Source: a virus
Reading direction: 5' to 3' (one strand)
DNA length: 25,882 nucleotides
IMG/VR virus record: IMGVR_UViG_3300020083_000066
Location: 1-25,882 of that record
Below the pieces are notes generated by a model. It was not told where the DNA came from. It saw only the letters and a program-made list of their open reading frames with translations, and ran no database searches. The first letter of the stretch is position 1. Each line of letters begins with the position of its first letter. The translations under genes and the position numbers were made by a program. Positions 168 to 19,107 of this stretch are shown here, one piece after another.

Positions 168-431
168 ATGAGAGTATATAGGTGTTATGACTTTAAGGTG
201 GGCAGGATAAAGGTAGCAGGCTGCAAGGACTGTCCAGCCAAGAATGTTAAAAGATATCAGAGCGGCGGGGTATTCAGTTCCGGTTATGTATGCCCGTTGT
301 TAAAGCAGACCAGAAAGGTACAAGATGGTACCGGCGAGTGGAGAGAGATTCAGGTTAATCCAAACATAAAAGAAGAAATGGCAAATGACGGGATACGGTT
401 TGATTGCCCGCTGCCTGTGTGGGAGGAGTAA
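168..431 (+). CDS. small cysteine-containing phage protein
   Basis: This 87-aa protein starts three bases after the GemA-like stop, with AAGGT just upstream. It has five cysteines: one near residue 6 (RCYDF), two in GCKDCPAKN, and one each in VCPLL and FDCPLP. The spacing suggests a metal- or disulfide-stabilised fold, but it is not a clean zinc-finger pattern and I do not recognise the family. The base composition resembles that of the flanking Mu-type genes. The close packing supports a real gene in the same transcript. Function unknown. Confidence 0.6.
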   Translation: MRVYRCYDFKVGRIKVAGCKDCPAKNVKRYQSGGVFSSGYVCPLLKQTRKVQDGTGEWREIQVNPNIKEEMANDGIRFDCPLPVWEE

Positions 432-440
432 GGTATGTTT

Positions 441-474
441 TACCACAAAGGCACAAAGGAACACAAAGAGCAAA
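441..474 (+). repeat. CACAAAGGCACAAAGG-type repeat before an AT-rich ORF
   Basis: The segment reads as a run of (C/G)CACAAAG-like units ending AACACAAAGAG and supplies the purine-rich ground just upstream of the ATG at 475. A related but GC-richer block lies at 1988-2070, before another AT-rich small gene. This type of degenerate ACAAAGG repeat is common in intergenic DNA of many uncultured bacteria, so it may be host-derived. Confidence 0.55.
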
Positions 475-1368
475 ATGAGAGTGATGATAATTAATATAGA
501 TTCGGTAATCCCCAATCTGGCTTTAGAAAAGATTAAACTCTATCATAAGAAATTGAATGATGAGTTCTATTATGATTTGCCTTTTATGCGACACGTAGTG
601 GATAAAATATATGCGAGTTGCGTCTTTACTAAAAATAAAGAAATAGCGGATGAATGGGCTGAATATGGAGCTGAGGTTGGTGGACCTGGCTATTCAATTT
701 TATCAAAACTTCCTAATGCTATCGAAAGCCTTAATCCACAAATAAATTTAGGTTTTATAACGAGGGGATGCAACAGAGATTGTTCTTTTTGTATTGTGCG
801 CAAAAAAGAAGGGAAAGTTCATCAAGTTGCAGCTTTAGAAGAGATATGGGATAAGAAAAGCCGGAAAGTTATATTATTGGATAATAATATTCTTTTTAAC
901 CGTAAGGCATTTATAGAAACAGCTAACTATGCTATAAAGAATAAAATACAATTAGATTTTAATCAGGGGCTTGATCATAGATTATTAACAGAAGAAATCT
1001 GCCATTATCTAAAGCAAATGCCACATAAATACTGGCGGTTTGCATTTGATTCACCCGAACAATATGAATCTGTGCATAAGGCAATAGATTTATTAAATAA
1101 ATATTCACTTAATTATAATGTATGGTATGTATTAAGCGGGTATAACACATCTTTCACAGAAGATTTAAGAAGATGCAATTACTTAAAAAGTCGCAACCAA
1201 AGAGTATTCTTAATGAGGTATGAAACAATCAGAGCGGAAAAAAAATATATCTTATTGGCTTCATGGACAGCACAAAGGGATCTGTTTGATAAATGGTCAT
1301 TTGATAAATATTGTAAAATAAAAAACTACAATGCAAAGGAGATAACCGATGGCAAAAATGAAACTTAA
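475..1368 (+). CDS. radical SAM protein (phage accessory gene)
   Basis: This 297-aa protein uses the ATG at 475; the open frame extends upstream to 385 only through repeat sequence and the preceding gene. The motif GCNRDCSFC gives a CX3CX2C cluster (Cys99, Cys103, Cys106) that would bind the [4Fe-4S]/S-adenosylmethionine centre of radical SAM enzymes. The roughly 95 residues before it look like a reduced cobalamin-binding-type or accessory domain (EYGAEVGGPGYS). Later LLDNN and FNQGLDHRL segments fit the TIM-barrel core. Substrate unknown. Codons are strikingly AT-rich compared with both neighbours, which suggests a recently acquired cargo gene. It overlaps the DUF3164 gene by 20 nt. Confidence 0.85.
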   Translation: MRVMIINIDSVIPNLALEKIKLYHKKLNDEFYYDLPFMRHVVDKIYASCVFTKNKEIADEWAEYGAEVGGPGYSILSKLPNAIESLNPQINLGFITRGCNRDCSFCIVRKKEGKVHQVAALEEIWDKKSRKVILLDNNILFNRKAFIETANYAIKNKIQLDFNQGLDHRLLTEEICHYLKQMPHKYWRFAFDSPEQYESVHKAIDLLNKYSLNYNVWYVLSGYNTSFTEDLRRCNYLKSRNQRVFLMRYETIRAEKKYILLASWTAQRDLFDKWSFDKYCKIKNYNAKEITDGKNET

Positions 1369-5515: not shown

Positions 5516-6772
5516 ATGGTAAAGATGCAAGTAAAGGTATTTAAGAAAGTGACGGGACTGGAGAGTTATGCCCAGAATGACACGGTAACAACGACGATGC
5601 GGGAAGTGGGAGCGATAGCACAGCCGGTGCCGTTTGACGGATTGTGGGAGTTTGCCAGGGCAGACGGTCTGCACAAGCGGTGTCTGACAAAGAAAGCGAC
5701 TTGTGTGGCGGGATTGGGACATAACTGGAAGAACGAGCAGGCAGATAAGCAGCCATTGATTAAGCAACCGAACGAGCGGGAGAGTTGGAGCGACATACTA
5801 ATCAAGCTGCAATGGGATTTGGAAACATTTGCGAACGGATATCTGGAACTGGTGCGTTTGGGCGGGAAACTGAGCTCCATCTATCACATTCCGGCGACCT
5901 ACATGTATGTGGGTAAGGACCGGGATTATGTGTGGCAGATCATGCCGGACGGGAAGAAGCAGAAGTTTGGCTATTACGGGGCTAAAAGAGACGAAATTGA
6001 CGAGCAGGGGCGTCCTCTGCATGAGATCATCCATTTTTGCAAATACAGCCCGGGAAACACCTATTATGGCGAGGTGGACTATACGGGGATACTGGACACG
6101 ATGGCAATCGTGAAGCAGGTGAAGAGCTATAACCTGAACTTTTTTTCGAATAATGCGACGCCGGACTTTGCGTTGATGGTGGAAGGCGGGGATTTGAGCG
6201 AGGAGAGCATCAAGGAGATAGAGGAGTACCTGGCGGACAATTTTAAGGGGGTGGCCAACAGTCACAAGATGCTGTTCATCCCGGTGAGTGACCCGAACGT
6301 AAAGGTGAAGCTGCAGCCGTTGCAGACGGTGAAAGAGGGGAGTTTTGTAGCGACGAAGGATCAGGGACGGGACGAGATAATCAACGTGCATGGGATACCG
6401 CCGAGAATAGTGGGGATAATGACGAGCGGCAGCCTGGGCGGGGGTGGTGAAATAACAGGCCAGCTACAGGTATTCCGGGACACAGACTGCGCCCCGAGTC
6501 AGCGGTGGCTGGAGAGCCGGATAAACGGACTGATAGAGAAAGAGACGGGGCTGAACCCGGAGCTGCACCTGCACGGACTGGACATAACGACGGACATGGA
6601 AGATGCGCAACGGTATGAGATATTGGTGCGGAACGGGATAATGACGGTGGACGAGGTGCGGAGTGAGCTGGGAATGGGGGCACTGGAAGGGGAGAATCCG
6701 GGTGAGTTGCTGGCGAGTTTACGGAAGATACGGGAGAAGATTCCTGCCTGCGCAGGAATGACAAAGGAGTAG
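5516..6772 (+). CDS. portal protein (PBSX/HK97 type)
   Basis: A 418-aa protein forming the dodecameric portal through which DNA enters and leaves the capsid. Recognisable segments are the ANGYLELVR-type core near residue 105, HFCKYSPGNTYYGEVDYTGIL (about 172-192) and INVHGIPPRIVGI (about 289-301), all typical of PBSX-family phage portals rather than the Mu gp29/DUF935 type. This suggests a mosaic genome. The last 11 residues (KIPACAGMTKE) are entirely encoded by an interspersed palindrome, whose AAAGGAG tail also provides the ribosome site of the next gene. The ATG follows the terminase stop directly; an in-frame ATG at 5525 is an alternative. Confidence 0.9.
   Translation: MVKMQVKVFKKVTGLESYAQNDTVTTTMREVGAIAQPVPFDGLWEFARADGLHKRCLTKKATCVAGLGHNWKNEQADKQPLIKQPNERESWSDILIKLQWDLETFANGYLELVRLGGKLSSIYHIPATYMYVGKDRDYVWQIMPDGKKQKFGYYGAKRDEIDEQGRPLHEIIHFCKYSPGNTYYGEVDYTGILDTMAIVKQVKSYNLNFFSNNATPDFALMVEGGDLSEESIKEIEEYLADNFKGVANSHKMLFIPVSDPNVKVKLQPLQTVKEGSFVATKDQGRDEIINVHGIPPRIVGIMTSGSLGGGGEITGQLQVFRDTDCAPSQRWLESRINGLIEKETGLNPELHLHGLDITTDMEDAQRYEILVRNGIMTVDEVRSELGMGALEGENPGELLASLRKIREKIPACAGMTKE
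6737..6764 (+). repeat. palindromic repeat forming the portal C-terminus
   Basis: The hairpin TTCCTGCCTGCGCAGGAA (6741-6758) and the TGACA tail are read in frame as the end of the portal protein. The adjacent AAAGGAG (6763-6769) acts as the ribosome-binding site for the ATG at 6778. Confidence 0.88.
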
Positions 6773-7322: not shown

Positions 7323-7844
7323 ATGACGACAGAAGAGGTATTCAGTCAGATAAGGCAGCGGTTGGACAGAGCGATAGACAACGCTCTGGATATGATAGGC
7401 GAACGGCTGCGGGGGGAGACACAGAAGCTATTGCGGGGGAAGAAGAAGATAGCCTGGAAGGAGCTGTTTGACAGCATCGTTTACCGGAAGGAGCGGCTGG
7501 CTTCGGGCTGGATACTGCATTTTGGGAGCAATGCCCGGCATGCGCGGTGGGTAAGTGAGGGCAGACCGGCGGGGAAGATGCCACCGATTGAGCCGATCAA
7601 GCGTTGGGTAATCCAAAAAGGGAGATTGAATCCGGGACTATTTAAGGGCGGGTTTGAGCGATATAACAGAATGAGCAAGAAGCAGAAAGCGGGTAAAGAG
7701 GCGGAAGCAGAGCGGGCAGCGTGGGGAGTGGCGATTAAAATCAAACATCGAGGAATCAAGGAATTTCCGTTTTTGACATTGATAGTGAACCAGGAGATAG
7801 GTAAAATCAACCAGATATTGCAAAAAGCGGTGCGGGAGATGTGA
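7323..7844 (+). CDS. HK97 gp10-like head-tail/tail-completion protein
   Basis: A 173-aa protein. The central segment LHFGSNARHARWVSEGRPAG, followed by PPIEPIKRWVIQKG, matches the H-x-x-W-V-x-x-G-x-P-x-G-x-x-PP-x-x-x-I-x-x-W pattern of HK97 gp10-like or phage virion morphogenesis proteins. These join the tail to the head or complete the neck. The C-terminus ends in a helix typical of the family. The stop overlaps the next start (TGATG at 7842-7846), indicating translational coupling to MuF. Confidence 0.75.
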   Translation: MTTEEVFSQIRQRLDRAIDNALDMIGERLRGETQKLLRGKKKIAWKELFDSIVYRKERLASGWILHFGSNARHARWVSEGRPAGKMPPIEPIKRWVIQKGRLNPGLFKGGFERYNRMSKKQKAGKEAEAERAAWGVAIKIKHRGIKEFPFLTLIVNQEIGKINQILQKAVREM

Positions 7845-9259
7845 TGAAGAGTGATGTGCGCAGTTTGGCAGCGAGCCGGGAGATCTGGCGGGCAAGCCGG
7901 GATAGAGACAGCCGGTTTGAGCTACTGACGGAGATAGATGCCATCATGGAAATAGTGGGCAAAGCCAAGCTGCGGAGCGCACAGGTGGAAGCGCTGATCA
8001 ACGACATGTACCTGGTGTTAGCTAACACACGGGAGGAACATCTGAAAGCAGCCTACCGGGAGATATTGAACGGACTGCAGGGGGGGATGGATGCGAGCCA
8101 GGCGGCGGAGCTGATCCGGCTGAAGCTGGGGGACGAATATGCAATAGCAGTGAACAAGCCGGTATATGAGTGGAGTAAAAGCGTATATAAACTGGGACAA
8201 CAGGAGATAAAGGCACAAACCGGGATCAGAATCGGATATGGGATAGAGGACGAGCAGGCGGTCAAATTATTACATGAGAACAACATATTTTACATAGGTC
8301 AGTATTATGACAGCCAACGGGGTGACATCATGCAGCGGGACTTGGGAAGGCTGTTTGCGGAGAGTTTGTCTCAACGAGAGCTGGCAGATAAGATAGCGGA
8401 GGCGATAGACCTGGATAACAAGCTGGGGAAGCACTACTTTCAGGGGTTTGTACGGCATGCGGCGGGGAGAGTGCGGAACGTTAGCCATGCGGTCACCTAT
8501 GAGCGGATAGGAGTGGAATATGCGGAAGTGGTGGCGATATTGGACGCTGCGACAACGGAAATCTGCCAAGAGATGAACGGGCGTTTGATCCCTGTGAAAC
8601 GGATGCGGGAGACGGCGGAGCAGATATTAAACATTGACACGGAAGGCAAGACACCGGATGAAGTAACAGAAGAGCTGAAGGCGATAGTGCCGTTCTGGAA
8701 TGACAAGGAGACAGGACGGATCAAAGGAATGAGCACGGAAGAATTGCTGACGGAGAATGCCGGATTGGACTTGCCACCTTATCACTGGGGCTGCAGGACA
8801 ACGACAGTGGCGTATTTTGAAGAGGAAGGGGAGAGCTATCAGGCGGAGGTTGGAACGGAGTGTGACGAAGAGACGGAGAATTATGCCAATAATCTGACGG
8901 ACAGAGAGATAGGTAACAAGATTCAGGCAATCCGAGAGATGGAGCGATTGGGGTATCGGAAGGAAGATTTGGCAAGCGACTGGGAGAAGCATTATGTGAA
9001 AGACCCAGATAAATGGGGACAATCTTTTAAAGATGAAAAGGATTATGCTGCATATGCCAATAGCGTGATAAAAGAAGCTGAACACGTAGCTATGCATATG
9101 TGGAATAAAGCGGAACTGCAGTTTGATTTTATTGGGAAAGGATGTTATGTGGTGGCAAACGGCAAGATGGAGATAGTGGGGATGTATCCACAAGGCAGCA
9201 CAGAAAGACTGTGGGAGCAACGGAAAAATTGGGTCAGGCTAAGAGGTAAAAATGGATAA
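7844..9259 (+). CDS. MuF head protein with C-terminal nuclease-like (BECR-type) extension
   Basis: A 471-aa protein. The ATG at 7844 overlaps the previous stop; a GTG at 7841 is an alternative. The MuF core is marked by LDAATTEICQEMNG near residue 233 and LPPYHWGCRTTTVAY near 309; MuF proteins sit at the portal and are often injected. Residues from about 348 onward are not standard MuF. The segment around EKHYVKDPDKWG (His383), YAAYANSVIKEAEHVAMHMW (His414, His418) and GKGCYVVANGKMEIVGMYPQG resembles the layout of barnase/EndoU/colicin/RelE-fold nuclease domains attached to phage MuF proteins. The final ~270 nt are more AT-rich than the core. Toxin activity is inference; MuF itself is well supported. 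Confidence 0.82.
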   Translation: MKSDVRSLAASREIWRASRDRDSRFELLTEIDAIMEIVGKAKLRSAQVEALINDMYLVLANTREEHLKAAYREILNGLQGGMDASQAAELIRLKLGDEYAIAVNKPVYEWSKSVYKLGQQEIKAQTGIRIGYGIEDEQAVKLLHENNIFYIGQYYDSQRGDIMQRDLGRLFAESLSQRELADKIAEAIDLDNKLGKHYFQGFVRHAAGRVRNVSHAVTYERIGVEYAEVVAILDAATTEICQEMNGRLIPVKRMRETAEQILNIDTEGKTPDEVTEELKAIVPFWNDKETGRIKGMSTEELLTENAGLDLPPYHWGCRTTTVAYFEEEGESYQAEVGTECDEETENYANNLTDREIGNKIQAIREMERLGYRKEDLASDWEKHYVKDPDKWGQSFKDEKDYAAYANSVIKEAEHVAMHMWNKAELQFDFIGKGCYVVANGKMEIVGMYPQGSTERLWEQRKNWVRLRGKNG

Positions 9260-9539
9260 AACTTATATAATGAACTATTTAAACGGATTCATTGAGTTTA
9301 ATACAGCCAGAGGCACGATATGGGCTGATTTGAATGCCATATTTGAGCACATGGAAGAGTACTTTGGCTATAATAAAGATAACTATGATGAAGAGATAGC
9401 CGGAGTTTTGAAGACTATCAAAGGGTTAATGGATGCCAGCGCAATCAGGGAAGCAGAGGTATGGCACAAACAAGCAGCTAACAAGAAACAAACTGCCTGG
9501 TGGATAGAGATAATGAGGCATGAAGGAGCAACGCTATGA
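9252..9539 (+). CDS. small acidic protein, candidate immunity partner of the MuF tail domain
   Basis: A 95-aa protein starting inside the end of the MuF gene (8-nt overlap), so it is probably coupled to it. It is helical, acidic and Trp/Tyr-rich (EEYFGYNKDNYDEEIAG in the middle, TAWWIEI near the end), with no signal peptide or known motif. Size, charge, overlap and the shared shift to AT-rich codons match what is known of immunity genes next to polymorphic toxins. I do not recognise the family. It could alternatively be an unrelated phage accessory gene. Confidence 0.7.
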   Translation: MDKTYIMNYLNGFIEFNTARGTIWADLNAIFEHMEEYFGYNKDNYDEEIAGVLKTIKGLMDASAIREAEVWHKQAANKKQTAWWIEIMRHEGATL

Positions 9540-9778
9540 CCAAGATGATATACCGGACAGAAGTGAAAGAAATGGAAGAAATCCGGATCAAGTGCGGGAC
9601 CTGCGGGACAGTGATCGAACTGGGGTGCAATTCAACTCATACGCCAGATAAGTGTATAAATTGCGATAAGGAAATGGACAAACACATAAAGGAAGCTATT
9701 GTGTTATTGCGTGATGGAATAAAGCAATACAGCCTGAGCAAAGGATTTGAGCTGAGCGTGCAGACGGAGAAGGAATAG
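9536..9778 (+). CDS. small zinc-ribbon protein
   Basis: An 80-aa protein linked to the previous gene by an ATGA overlap. Two knuckles, IKCGTCGTVIELGC near residues 18-31 and KCINCDKEM near 39-47, give a CX2C...CX2C set expected to bind one zinc ion in a ribbon. The C-terminal half is helical. Such small ribbons occur in many phages with regulatory or unknown roles. It is the last gene before a strong terminator and completes the MuF-associated trio. Confidence 0.7.
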   Translation: MTKMIYRTEVKEMEEIRIKCGTCGTVIELGCNSTHTPDKCINCDKEMDKHIKEAIVLLRDGIKQYSLSKGFELSVQTEKE

Positions 9779-10150: not shown

Positions 10151-11200
10151 ATGAAAGGTAAGAGACTGAAGGGCTTGAGGGTAAAGTTTATCAGCCTGGT
10201 AGATAAAGGAGCGAATAACCGCCCGATTGTGCTGAAGGATGAGGGGCAAGTGGAGCATCTGCTTACGGTGTCGATAGCGAAGGTGGATGAAGAACTACGG
10301 AAGGTGTATGGGATAGTATATCCGGTGAATGAGAAGGATGCGCATGGGGATTGGGCTTTGAAGGAAGATTTATGGCCTGCACAGGAAGACTTTATGAAAA
10401 ACATGCGGCTTTTGAACATCGACCGTCAGCACAATATGGAGAAGCAGGAAGCATTTATCAGCGAGAGCTGGATAGTGCGGGCCGGAGATCCGATGTTTCC
10501 GGAGGCGAAGGATGTGGATGCCTGGGCAGTGGCGGTGAAGATAGAGGACGATAAACTCTGGGCGGACTGCAAGAGTGGTAAGATAGGCGGACTGAGCTTA
10601 TACGGGACATTCATGGATGACAGCGGCAAGAGCCTGTGGGAGCAGTTCAAGAACTGGGCAGGCATCAAAAAGACGATGCTGGATGATGAGCTGAGAGCCA
10701 GAAGCGCAGAAGAGATAATGTGGGCATTTCAATGCGCCATCAGAGAATTGATAGAGAGCCAGGATGAGAGCATAGACAAAGAGATGGAACTGGCCGAGAT
10801 GCTGAACCAACTGGGCGTGATGCTATCGGAGACAATCTTGATGAAATCGGGGGCGGTGCTGAGCCAAAGCAACCGCAGTAAACTGGAGAGCGCAATCGAG
10901 AGTTTACGGCTGATATTAGAGGCAGCAACAAGCGAAAAAAGTCATAAAGGAGAAGACAAAATGGACGAAAAGCAAGTAAAGGCATATGTGGACGAGGCTT
11001 TGGCCAAGCAGAAGCAGGAGCTGGAGGCAGCCCACACAGAGCAGATGGCAGCGGTAACGAAATCTGCCGAGGACAAGATAAGCGAGCTGGAGAAGAAACT
11101 TGCAGCCACCCAAGAGACAGTGGAACTGCTGAAGGCAACCATCCTGAAATCCAGCCAGCAGGAAAACGGTGGCGGCGGGGAAGCCGTCAGCGTGGTTTAG
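10151..11200 (+). CDS. prohead maturation protease (XkdF/S78_2-like) with C-terminal scaffold
   Basis: A 349-aa protein. Residues about 40-160 carry RKVYGIVYPVNEKDAHGDW, LNIDRQHNMEKQ (His94), ISESWIV (Ser104/Ser106) and GKIGGLSLYGTF, the pattern of XkdF-like putative serine proteases that trim the scaffold and capsid during maturation. The N-terminal FISLVDKGANNRP is also typical of this family. After a helical linker, residues 271-349 form a Lys/Glu/Ala coiled coil ending in a Gly-rich tail, as in capsid scaffolds. An internal start at 10961 probably makes the scaffold alone. GGGAG precedes the ATG. Exact catalytic residues are not assigned. Confidence 0.85.
   Translation: MKGKRLKGLRVKFISLVDKGANNRPIVLKDEGQVEHLLTVSIAKVDEELRKVYGIVYPVNEKDAHGDWALKEDLWPAQEDFMKNMRLLNIDRQHNMEKQEAFISESWIVRAGDPMFPEAKDVDAWAVAVKIEDDKLWADCKSGKIGGLSLYGTFMDDSGKSLWEQFKNWAGIKKTMLDDELRARSAEEIMWAFQCAIRELIESQDESIDKEMELAEMLNQLGVMLSETILMKSGAVLSQSNRSKLESAIESLRLILEAATSEKSHKGEDKMDEKQVKAYVDEALAKQKQELEAAHTEQMAAVTKSAEDKISELEKKLAATQETVELLKATILKSSQQENGGGGEAVSVV
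10961..11200 (+). CDS. nested scaffold protein from an internal in-frame start
   Basis: The ATG at 10961 is preceded by AAAGGAG (10946-10952) at about 8 nt and is in frame with the protease gene. It would give a 79-aa, highly helical acidic/basic coiled-coil protein (MDEKQVKAYVDEALAKQKQ...). Nested protease/scaffold pairs are established for Mu (I/Z) and lambda (C/Nu3). The product would assemble inside the prohead and be removed by the protease. The start is predicted from the sequence, not proven. Confidence 0.65.
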   Translation: MDEKQVKAYVDEALAKQKQELEAAHTEQMAAVTKSAEDKISELEKKLAATQETVELLKATILKSSQQENGGGGEAVSVV

Positions 11201-16824: not shown

Positions 16825-19107
16825 ATGGGAATAGGAATTGGAATAGGAATAGGCAAGACGGGTAAGCAAGAAGCGGCGGGCATCTATATAACCAATGAAA
16901 TGACACCGTTTTATATTCAAGATATAGAAGGAGGTCTATCTAAAACAGTTCAGACTATCGGAGTCAAAGTTATCAAGATGCCCGATGAAATTACCGTTGT
17001 TAGAAAGTTTGATGAGATATATTCCAAGTGCGGAATTAGTTTAGATGGCGAATCATTTGATAGTCCCGTTGTTCTGCCGATAAACTATAATGGATTACTA
17101 TACATTAAATTTCTCGACGAAGAGAACGGGCTATACGATATTGGAATTGATTTCAAAATCAATGATGAAATAGTAAAAGAAGTGACTGCAAAAGGATACA
17201 TTGGTGACAACACGGAAGACAATCCACTTCCTGTCTGCGACCCTGCCACATTTGATAAAATAAGAGAACTGAGAGAAGCAAGTCATTATATTTATGCTGA
17301 TATTGATGTGGCAGGAATAGCATTTACTCCACTTGGAATGCAGTCGCAGGAGTTTGTTGGCAGTTTAATAACCGATAATAAAATAGTCAAAAACATAACT
17401 ATCAATATGCCTAATGATGATAATATCGGAGTGTTTTCTTATACAATTGGGGCAACATTCAAAAATATAAGAATTGAAAATGCCAATATAATCTGCAACA
17501 GAATGAGCGGCGGCTTTGTGGCATTGCCTTCGGAATCAAGTTTTGAAAACTGCCATATATCCGGGACAATGCGTTGTCATTCAAATTGCGGTGGATTTTC
17601 ACATTATTCTGCCAGTAATCAATATAAAAATTGCTCGGCAGATATTGTTGCATTACTGGAAGCAGGGAGCTTCAGCGGATTTGTTGACTATTCTGTGCTT
17701 GATACGGTTAATGAATGTAATGCGAAATTGATTGCAGACAGTAAAGGTGCAGGAACTTCATTAGTCGGATTTAATGGAACAAGCGAAGGGTCAATCTTTA
17801 CCAATTGTTATGCGACCGGACATATTAAAAAAGCAGGACAATTCTCTGCGGGATTTATGTATATGGCAATGGCGGAGTTGGGCTCACAGCAAAAAACAGA
17901 AGCCACTAATTGCTACTCAGCAGTTAAGCTTGACTATACAATGGAAAATCCCACAATAGATGATTTGGGCGGATTTGTTCAATTTATAGATGTTGACCTG
18001 CAAGAAGAGCCAGCAGGCATATTCACAGATTGCTTCTATGACTCTGAATATGAGGGCATTGATTTCTCGGCGGCAGGGACAGCTAAGACAACTGCCCAAA
18101 TGAAAGACCAAGCAACTTTCACTAATTGGGATTTTGAGAATGCTGTCGGAATATGGAAAATACCTACCAATAGATATCCGCAACTTAATCATTATTTGGA
18201 AAGAGACTGGTTTGAGCTTTCTCTTTTAGATAAAATAGTTCAAGGCAACCTAACGGACACAATAACCGCTCTTGAAACATTTAATGCAATACCAACCAGA
18301 TATTGCGGATATAAGGTCAACGATAGTCCCAAGTTAGTTGCCGACTACTCTGCCCAAAGATTTGCAGCAATGGGAATAACGGATATAAAATACTGCATCA
18401 ATCGTGACTTTGAGCATTCGGGAATGCCCGAGATATTCGGTCTTGTAGATGTAATCAGCGTTATTGCGACAATCAAAGGCATTAAATATCCCACTAAGTA
18501 TCTCTATGTAACTGCTCATCACGACAGCATAGAAAATTATTCAACAGAATATCCAGACAATCCAGCACCGGGAGCAGATGACAACGGATCAGGCATGGCA
18601 ATTATGTTCGAAATAGCCCGCATTATTATGGAAAGTGGATTCAGACCTGAATATTCAATAAGATTTTGTTCGTTTGGCGGAGAAGAGACAGGAACTGCCG
18701 GGTCAAAGTTCTATATGGATAAATATATCACGCCAAACGATACTCCAATCGCTTGTATTAATATTGATATGGTCGGCACAGATATCAGAGAAGAAGCGAA
18801 TTGGTTGCTAAAAGTTATCCAATATACCGCGTCCGACCCTGGGGCAAAGTTTAATAAGGGTGTCAGAAACATATTTGAGCAAAAGGCAGATTTGAATACA
18901 ACCACTCCGGTTCCAACGAATGTTGGCTCTGATGCGACTTCATTTGACGAAAAGGGAATACCATCTGTATGGATACACGAAGACCTTAAATCCGCATTTT
19001 ATCACACAGAAGACGACTTGCGTGAAAACATGAATATTCCGTATCTGATGAAAGTTGCCAAAGGCGCTTTGTGGTCAGTATTATATTATTCAAAAAGGAT
19101 TGCCTAA
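16825..19107 (+). CDS. GLUG-repeat protein with C-terminal M28 metallopeptidase
   Basis: A 760-aa protein. Residues 1-10 are a Gly-Ile repeat. Residues about 205-455 contain GLUG-like repeats (SGGFVAL, NCGGFSH, TNCYATGHI, LGGFVQF) and the usual closing TNWDFENAVGIWKI...YPQL. Residues about 535-755 form an M28 aminopeptidase-like domain with all expected zinc and catalytic residues: His565-x-Asp567 (TAHHD), Asp585 (GADDNGSG), Glu620-Glu621 (GGEET), Asp648 (IDMVG) and His727 (YHTEDD). It probably digests a host surface protein or peptide during adsorption. There is no signal peptide, and the location is inside the tail module. Codons are AT-rich unlike the neighbours, indicating transfer. The weak ribosome site is the main caveat about its start. 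Confidence 0.85.
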   Translation: MGIGIGIGIGKTGKQEAAGIYITNEMTPFYIQDIEGGLSKTVQTIGVKVIKMPDEITVVRKFDEIYSKCGISLDGESFDSPVVLPINYNGLLYIKFLDEENGLYDIGIDFKINDEIVKEVTAKGYIGDNTEDNPLPVCDPATFDKIRELREASHYIYADIDVAGIAFTPLGMQSQEFVGSLITDNKIVKNITINMPNDDNIGVFSYTIGATFKNIRIENANIICNRMSGGFVALPSESSFENCHISGTMRCHSNCGGFSHYSASNQYKNCSADIVALLEAGSFSGFVDYSVLDTVNECNAKLIADSKGAGTSLVGFNGTSEGSIFTNCYATGHIKKAGQFSAGFMYMAMAELGSQQKTEATNCYSAVKLDYTMENPTIDDLGGFVQFIDVDLQEEPAGIFTDCFYDSEYEGIDFSAAGTAKTTAQMKDQATFTNWDFENAVGIWKIPTNRYPQLNHYLERDWFELSLLDKIVQGNLTDTITALETFNAIPTRYCGYKVNDSPKLVADYSAQRFAAMGITDIKYCINRDFEHSGMPEIFGLVDVISVIATIKGIKYPTKYLYVTAHHDSIENYSTEYPDNPAPGADDNGSGMAIMFEIARIIMESGFRPEYSIRFCSFGGEETGTAGSKFYMDKYITPNDTPIACINIDMVGTDIREEANWLLKVIQYTASDPGAKFNKGVRNIFEQKADLNTTTPVPTNVGSDATSFDEKGIPSVWIHEDLKSAFYHTEDDLRENMNIPYLMKVAKGALWSVLYYSKRIA

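What the first reader, a model, noticed from the sequence alone, without database searches (positions are those of the whole stretch)
7844..9539. MuF head protein with a nuclease-like tail and a coupled candidate immunity gene
After the MuF core (ends near PPYHWGCRTTTVAY, about residue 320) there are ~120 residues outside the family's core. They have a His-rich helix, then a compact strand pattern resembling barnase/EndoU/colicin/RelE-fold nucleases known to be fused to MuF in other phages. A small acidic gene overlaps it by 8 nt and shares its AT-rich codon use, which differs from the MuF core. Together this looks like an injectable toxin plus its protective partner inside a structural operon. 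Seen: architecture, overlap, composition. Inferred: toxicity and immunity.
Basis: partly seen in the sequence, partly recalled or inferred. Interest (0 to 1): 0.75.

Follow-up and report, generated by a model that had tools for sequence, protein, structure and literature searches.

The report
Phage head-protein toxin with immunity partner
A phage head protein that probably enters the next host cell with the viral DNA carries a swappable toxin-like tail, probably RNA-cutting, and the small gene overlapping its end probably makes the antidote; the arrangement is known, but this toxin family and its partner are absent from the databases searched.

Summary
Confirmed: window 7844-9259 encodes a 471-aa MuF minor head protein; the core ends near residue 324 and a foreign-looking ~100-aa domain follows. 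A 95-aa ORF overlaps it by 8 nt. Domain and ORF share low GC3 (0.42, 0.44), below every 95-codon stretch of the surrounding head genes.

The nearest MuF relatives have no tail or quite different tails (metallopeptidase-like, ADP-ribosyltransferase, papain-fold, CdiA_C, ParB). Across 56 deduplicated MuFs a small abutting ORF follows 38/46 long tails but 2/10 short ones, and tail and partner co-vary. This repeats the published MuF polymorphic-toxin pattern (Jamet 2017).

New here: the tail belongs to a family with no Pfam, PHROGs or NCBIfam entry (relatives' profile: E about 1e-6, 0 of ~3000 shuffles). Most partners in that family carry a C-terminal WW/WWW motif; the 95-aa protein has WWIEIM. 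Three members fetched by the tail profile alone all had WWW partners.

A nuclease fold is plausible, not shown: the family leads through a distant relative to solved toxin 8ey4 and has a His-helix-then-strands layout, but the structure models failed and the usual strand Thr is Gly446 here. Toxicity and immunity remain untested. A new toxin-immunity family inside a known kind of system.

The parts
7844..8815 (+). MuF (phage minor head protein) core, residues 1-324, ending PPYHWGCRTTTVAY
   Evidence: phrog_9907 'minor head protein and DNA pilot' E=3.5e-17; TIGR01641 38.9 bits against cut-off 39.65; PF04233 17.9 bits, below cut-off 29.6; 23-32% identical to MuF cores of other phages
8816..8950 (+). 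Linker, residues 325-369
   Evidence: GC3 still head-like at 8816-8953 (0.59); absent in relatives whose MuF ends 6-9 residues after the core motif (L007, L099, L101, L105, L109)
8951..9256 (+). Candidate toxin domain, residues 370-471; H383 (nt 8990-8992) and Y401 aligned with family-invariant columns in A6; G446 (nt 9179-9181) where most members have Thr
   Evidence: Profile of relatives' tails scores it 20.7-22.1 bits, E 9e-7 to 3e-6 among 116 tails, 0 of ~3000 shuffles reach this; GC3 0.42
9241..9247 (+). Ribosome-binding-like site AAGAGGT for the 95-aa ORF, inside the MuF gene
   Evidence: sequence
9252..9539 (+). 95-aa ORF, candidate immunity protein, overlapping MuF by 8 nt; motif WWIEIM at residues 83-88 (nt 9498-9515)
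   Evidence: WW motif shared with partners of the same tail family; no homologue by profile or BLAST
9536..9778 (+). 80-aa zinc-ribbon protein, probably outside the cassette (GC3 back to 0.56)
   Evidence: phrog_4875 E=7e-5; weak match to the Com translational regulator phrog_6417, E=0.015; GC3
5516..6772 (+). Portal protein (context)
   Evidence: phrog_12 E=1e-51
10151..11200 (+). Head maturation protease (context)
   Evidence: phrog_3017 E=3e-34

Best explanation
The gene is a MuF polymorphic toxin. The MuF core (shown) is a head component expected to sit at the portal and to be delivered with the DNA (inferred from the family). [quoted passage not shown] The 95-aa protein, translationally coupled to it (shown: overlap and ribosome-binding site), most likely binds the toxin domain and blocks it in the producing cell (inferred). 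Domain and partner moved together as one AT-richer cassette into a GC-richer head operon (composition shown, transfer inferred).
For: Nearest MuF relatives: L099, L101, L105 and L109 (29-31% identical) have no tail; L006 and L100 have metallopeptidase-like tails; L098 has another domain. L006 has its own 75-aa ORF abutting the MuF stop, while tail-less L007 goes straight to the protease. Small abutting ORF after 40/46 long tails and 2/10 short ones; 38/46 after removing two that are not small partner genes (L021, L028), Fisher p=3e-4. Tail and partner co-vary: 14 of 20 tail-similar pairs have similar partners, permutation p=2e-4; among pairs with cores at least 60% identical and dissimilar tails, 61/63 have dissimilar partners. 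Tail GC3 is below core GC3 in 40/45 relatives, p=2e-8. Window tail belongs to a family with L107, L113, L115, L121, L122, L123, L163, L074, L184, L185, L186. Partners with WW: 6/8 in that family against 0/57 others, p=3e-7 (2.8e-6 without the window); three further members fetched blind by the tail profile all have WWW partners overlapping the MuF stop by 4-23 nt. Distant relative L187 matches solved PT-VENN toxin-region chain 8ey4 at E=1.2e-5. Known class: PMC5576092, PMC12226406.
Against: No toxicity or neutralisation data. The 95-aa ORF is not found by the partner profile (6.1 bits, ranked below shuffles); its link rests on a short motif read partly after the fact, and P(WW) by chance is 12% given its four Trp. 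The strand Thr is Gly446 (also Gly in L122 and L163), and one alignment (fam13) puts Asp387 rather than H383 in the conserved His column, so the domain could be inactive or catalytically different. AlphaFold2 pLDDT 45 and 49, no fold match. Whether the phage is temperate, as MuF toxins usually are, cannot be seen in this fragment.
Confidence: 0.85

Rival explanations
1. The tail is a degenerate, non-toxic domain kept for a structural or RNA-binding role, as proposed for the inactive PBECR domain of phage Mu gpF; the 95-aa gene is a leftover or an unrelated late gene.
For: G446 replaces the Thr found in most family members; His placement is ambiguous; an inactive PBECR in Mu gpF is described in PMC5512222.
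Against: L122 and L163 also have Gly there yet keep WWW partners, so the Gly form recurs with an intact partner. The reading frame, overlap and ribosome-binding site of the 95-aa ORF are intact.
Confidence: 0.12
2. The tail is an early-infection effector injected to subvert or disarm the infected host (for example cleaving defence RNAs), not a weapon against competitors; the partner only keeps it quiet until packaging.
For: MuF-linked enzyme domains are proposed as injected effectors in PMC5512222. Presence in a virion protein fits.
Against: Tail swapping with a co-varying specific partner is the polymorphic-toxin signature, though it does not exclude this. Sequence cannot separate the two.
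Confidence: 0.25
3. The tail is a toxin or effector of another enzyme class, not BECR.
For: No curated nuclease model matches the window tail. Known MuF tails include many other enzymes.
Against: Family link to L187 and 8ey4, sub-threshold PBECR2 hit of L122 (E=0.14), and hhalign of the family to PBECR2 members aligning the His-helix region (P=0.002, probability 14%).
Confidence: 0.35

Closest known systems
MuF polymorphic toxins of temperate phages (Jamet et al. 2017, PMC5576092)
   Same: MuF core in the portal/protease head operon, variable C-terminal extension, small ORF right after it; they report small ORFs after 89.4% of toxin MuFs and 25.5% of short MuFs, against 83% and 20% here
   Different: Extension family not in the curated libraries searched; MuF toxins were described mainly in Firmicutes phages, while the host here is unknown and family members found include Desulfobacterota genomes; two small genes lie between portal and MuF
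PBECR domains fused to MuF (Iyer et al. 2017, PMC5512222; Pfam PF18810 and relatives)
   Same: MuF plus small domain with a His motif then a strand meander; weak profile similarity of relatives to PBECR2
   Different: No PBECR model hits the window tail; strand Thr is Gly446
PT-VENN (CDI-type) toxin-region chain, PDB 8ey4
   Same: H-x3-KH-x2-F ... rT-hFKP layout matched by relative L187 (E=1.2e-5) and by the family profile A8 that includes L187 (E=0.006)
   Different: Not matched by the window sequence itself; carried by a different kind of toxin protein according to its PDB name
Apk2/IapK MuF toxin-immunity pairs (PMC12226406)
   Same: MuF C-terminal toxin followed by an immunity gene whose product blocks the toxin by binding; experimentally shown there
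   Different: Different enzyme ((p)ppApp synthetase) and different immunity proteins

Membership tests
MuF polymorphic toxin | N-terminal MuF head-protein domain | tested here: met
   phrog_9907 E=3.5e-17; TIGR01641 just under cut-off; PF04233 below cut-off; alignment with other MuFs
MuF polymorphic toxin | Gene in the head module close to the portal gene | tested here: met
   Portal 5516-6772, two small genes, then MuF 7844; not immediately adjacent
MuF polymorphic toxin | C-terminal extension absent or different in related MuFs | tested here: met
MuF polymorphic toxin | Extension is a recognised toxin domain | tested here: inconclusive
   No curated hit; membership of an uncatalogued tail family linked only distantly to 8ey4
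MuF polymorphic toxin | Small downstream ORF under 150 aa, candidate immunity | tested here: met
   95-aa ORF at -8
MuF polymorphic toxin | Encoded by a temperate phage | not testable with these tools
   25.9-kb fragment; no lysogeny region present
BECR / PBECR nuclease fold | Match to a curated PBECR/BECR profile | tested here: not met
   No such hit at E<=5 for the window tail; relative L122 only E=0.14
BECR / PBECR nuclease fold | His in the N-terminal helix | tested here: inconclusive
   H383 aligns with the invariant His in A6; A7 and fam13 shift it to Asp387
BECR / PBECR nuclease fold | Ser/Thr in strand 4 | tested here: not met
   Gly446 in the window, Gly also in L122 and L163, Thr in the other members covering that column
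[quoted passage not shown]
   Low-confidence model: long helix then three strands (pLDDT 48.6)
WW/WWW-motif partner family (seen here) | C-terminal WW-rich motif in a gene overlapping or abutting the MuF stop | tested here: met
   WWIEIM at residues 83-88; composition shuffles give that pattern in 0.05%, pattern defined partly after seeing it
WW/WWW-motif partner family (seen here) | Match to a profile of the other partners | tested here: not met
   6.1 bits, within the shuffle range

The most novel reading that the evidence does not exclude
An undescribed MuF toxin family, of which this is a divergent branch with Gly in place of the strand Thr (also L122 and L163), uses a changed active site, and is matched by a fast-evolving family of WW/WWW-motif immunity proteins that plug it with the aromatic C-terminus.
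Probability: 0.3. Interest if true: 0.55.

Novelty: new member of a known kind. Interest (0 to 1): 0.42.

Why it matters
MuF toxins are predicted far more often than tested. This gives a compact, testable pair from a poorly represented phage group, a family definition that fetched further members from genomes, and a motif in the partner that ties antidote to toxin where sequence similarity fails. It also shows that tail cassettes are AT-richer than their cores in 40 of 45 relatives, a simple signal for finding such cassettes.

Tried and rejected
Single-protein scans of IMG/VR and GTDB contigs with the tail, the 95-aa ORF, the portal or the full MuF found no useful relatives beyond one tail-less MuF. 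Phage and plasmid tblastn found no tail homologue; the 95-aa ORF hits only nifK at E>=0.07, chance. Apparent extension of the DLP5 match through the tail is a different, ParB-like domain. phrog_16096 (E=0.011) could not be followed up. Genome hits L095-L097 and L188 are chance: L097 overlaps the end of an unrelated enzyme gene, L188 is a helicase-like protein. AlphaFold2 on the whole tail and on the trimmed domain: pLDDT 45 and 49; Foldseek gave nothing at E<=0.001, and these lists were not used. A first hhalign against PBECR2 used two wrong-frame sequences and was redone. Portal and capsid alignment scans gave phages without a comparable MuF locus or repeated known ones. L021 and L028 score weakly with the tail family but lack a small partner gene at the stop; kept as doubtful members.

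Full report
What is there. The window is a 25.9-kb IMG/VR virus record. Its head module reads terminase (4010), portal (5516), two small genes, MuF (7844-9259), a 95-aa ORF (9252-9539), an 80-aa zinc-ribbon ORF (9536-9778), head protease (10151) and capsid (11210). The MuF match is clear in PHROGs, just under the cut-off in NCBIfam and below the cut-off in Pfam. The tail and the 95-aa ORF match nothing convincing in Pfam, PHROGs, NCBIfam, PADLOC or PDB sequences.

The tail is a separable module. MuF relatives aligned over the core stop 6-9 residues after the conserved PPxHxxCR motif (L007, L099, L101, L105, L109, 29-31% identical to the window) or carry unrelated tails: metallopeptidase-like (L006, L100), papain-fold glutamine-deamidase toxin (L017), CdiA_C (L024), ADP-ribosyltransferase (L011, L025), ParB-like in phage DLP5. 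HExxH occurs in 24 of 46 long tails.

A partner gene goes with a tail. In L006 a different 75-aa ORF abuts the MuF stop, while in tail-less L007 the protease gene follows directly. Over 56 MuFs clustered at 80% identity, a small ORF of at least 40 aa starting within -40..+30 nt of the MuF stop is found after 40/46 tails of 80 aa or more and after 2/10 shorter ones; two of the 40 are not small partner genes (L021 with 486 aa; L028, a neck-type protein), leaving 38/46, Fisher p=3e-4. This agrees with the published 89.4% and 25.5% (PMC5576092). Exceptions include the CdiA_C-like tails L024, L067, L071 and L076. Similar tails have similar partners (14 of 20 pairs; permutation p=2e-4), and where cores are at least 60% identical but tails differ, partners differ in 61 of 63 pairs.

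Composition. In the window GC3 falls from 0.64 in the core to 0.42 in the domain and 0.44 in the 95-aa ORF, below the minimum (0.526) of 1643 windows of head genes, and returns to 0.56 in the zinc-ribbon ORF. The same fall from core to tail is seen in 40 of 45 relatives (p=2e-8). The paper text on MuF toxins has no mention of composition. Genes elsewhere in the window are equally AT-rich, so this is supporting evidence only.

The window tail has relatives. A scan with the alignment of the three closest MuFs brought in 80 loci, two of them already held. A profile of six tails that excludes the window scores it 22.1 bits, E=9e-7 among 116 tails; 0 of 2952 shuffles and no reversed tail come near. 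Cut down to the domain alone it is 15.6 bits, E=1.2e-4; with ten and twelve members 20.7 and 21.3 bits. None of the members tested has a Pfam match above cut-off.

The partners of that family share a motif. Of eight family partners (window included) six contain WW, near the C-terminus, against 0 of 57 partners of other tails (p=3e-7; 2.8e-6 without the window). As a blind check, the tail profile alone was searched in whole genomes: the three further MuF members found, L184 and L185 (from genomes of the phylum of the Desulfarculaceae locus L074) and L186 (a genome of the phylum of L069), all have a WWW-containing partner overlapping the MuF stop by 4-23 nt. A fourth, distant hit, L187, has a Cys_rich_CPCC protein as partner instead. 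The window's 95-aa protein has WWIEIM, close to WWIEEL in L122, whose partner is also 95 aa. But it fails the partner profile, and with four Trp it would contain WW by chance 12% of the time, so its membership rests on position plus motif.

Is it a nuclease? BECR toxins have a His helix, four or five strands and often Ser/Thr in strand 4 (PMC5512222). The family has [F/Y/H]x2[K/R]H, an invariant Tyr, then strands ending in I-x-T-[L/M/F]-[Y/F]. L187 matches solved chain 8ey4, named a PT-VENN domain protein, at E=1.2e-5, and profile A8, which includes L187, matches it at E=0.006. L122 has a sub-threshold PBECR2 hit, and hhalign to PBECR2 members aligns the His helix (P=0.002, probability 14%). 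In the window the Thr is Gly446, as in L122 and L163, and His383 or Asp387 occupies the His column depending on the alignment. Structure models were unusable. I hold the BECR reading at about 55%.

Verdict. A MuF polymorphic toxin with a probable cognate immunity protein, from a family with no entry in the libraries searched. Known kind, new member. Toxicity, target and neutralisation are untested.

Noticed in passing
window 2772, 3861, 7274, 9973, 10012, 12813, 13851, 15756 and 3894, 6728, 9930, 12848, 14498, 16778, 19797, 22910: Two families of REP-like palindromic repeats, eight copies each (GGATCCCCGATCAGGTCGGGGATGACA; GATTCCTGCCTTCGCAGGAATGACA), mostly between phage genes, plus AATTATGAATTACGAA and CGCAAAGGCGCAAAG repeats. 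This looks like host-type repeats accumulated in a long-resident prophage; unusual density for a phage.
   Followed up: no
window 16825-19107: 760-aa protein with an M28 peptidase domain (PF04389 E=3e-33) and a weak GLUG motif, AT-rich (GC3 0.34), among the structural genes.
   Followed up: partly
window 385-1368: Radical SAM protein (phrog_9298 E=2e-53) at the left end of the phage fragment.
   Followed up: no
L024, L067, L071, L076: MuF proteins with CdiA_C-type tails (L024 matched by Pfam, the others by resemblance) have no abutting partner gene, unlike nearly all other long tails; immunity may lie elsewhere or be unnecessary.
   Followed up: no
L187 217-1809 and the ORF after it: MuF with a tail close to solved toxin-region chain 8ey4, paired with a Cys_rich_CPCC (PF14206 E=1e-20) protein, suggesting CPCC proteins act as immunity proteins for this toxin type.
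   Followed up: partly
L098, L108, L126, L130, L142-L147, L153-L158, L162, L166, L168: A second recurrent MuF tail type (H..KH...ALNSI...NGYFxVFxGDEIVTxFKP) paired in most loci with ~100-120 aa partners often ending like FDGTLxDALLxIANEG; no Pfam match above cut-off for the three tested.
   Followed up: no
window 9536-9778: 80-aa zinc-ribbon protein, weakly like the Mu Com translational regulator; zinc-ribbon ORFs also sit near MuF in L006 and L007.
   Followed up: no
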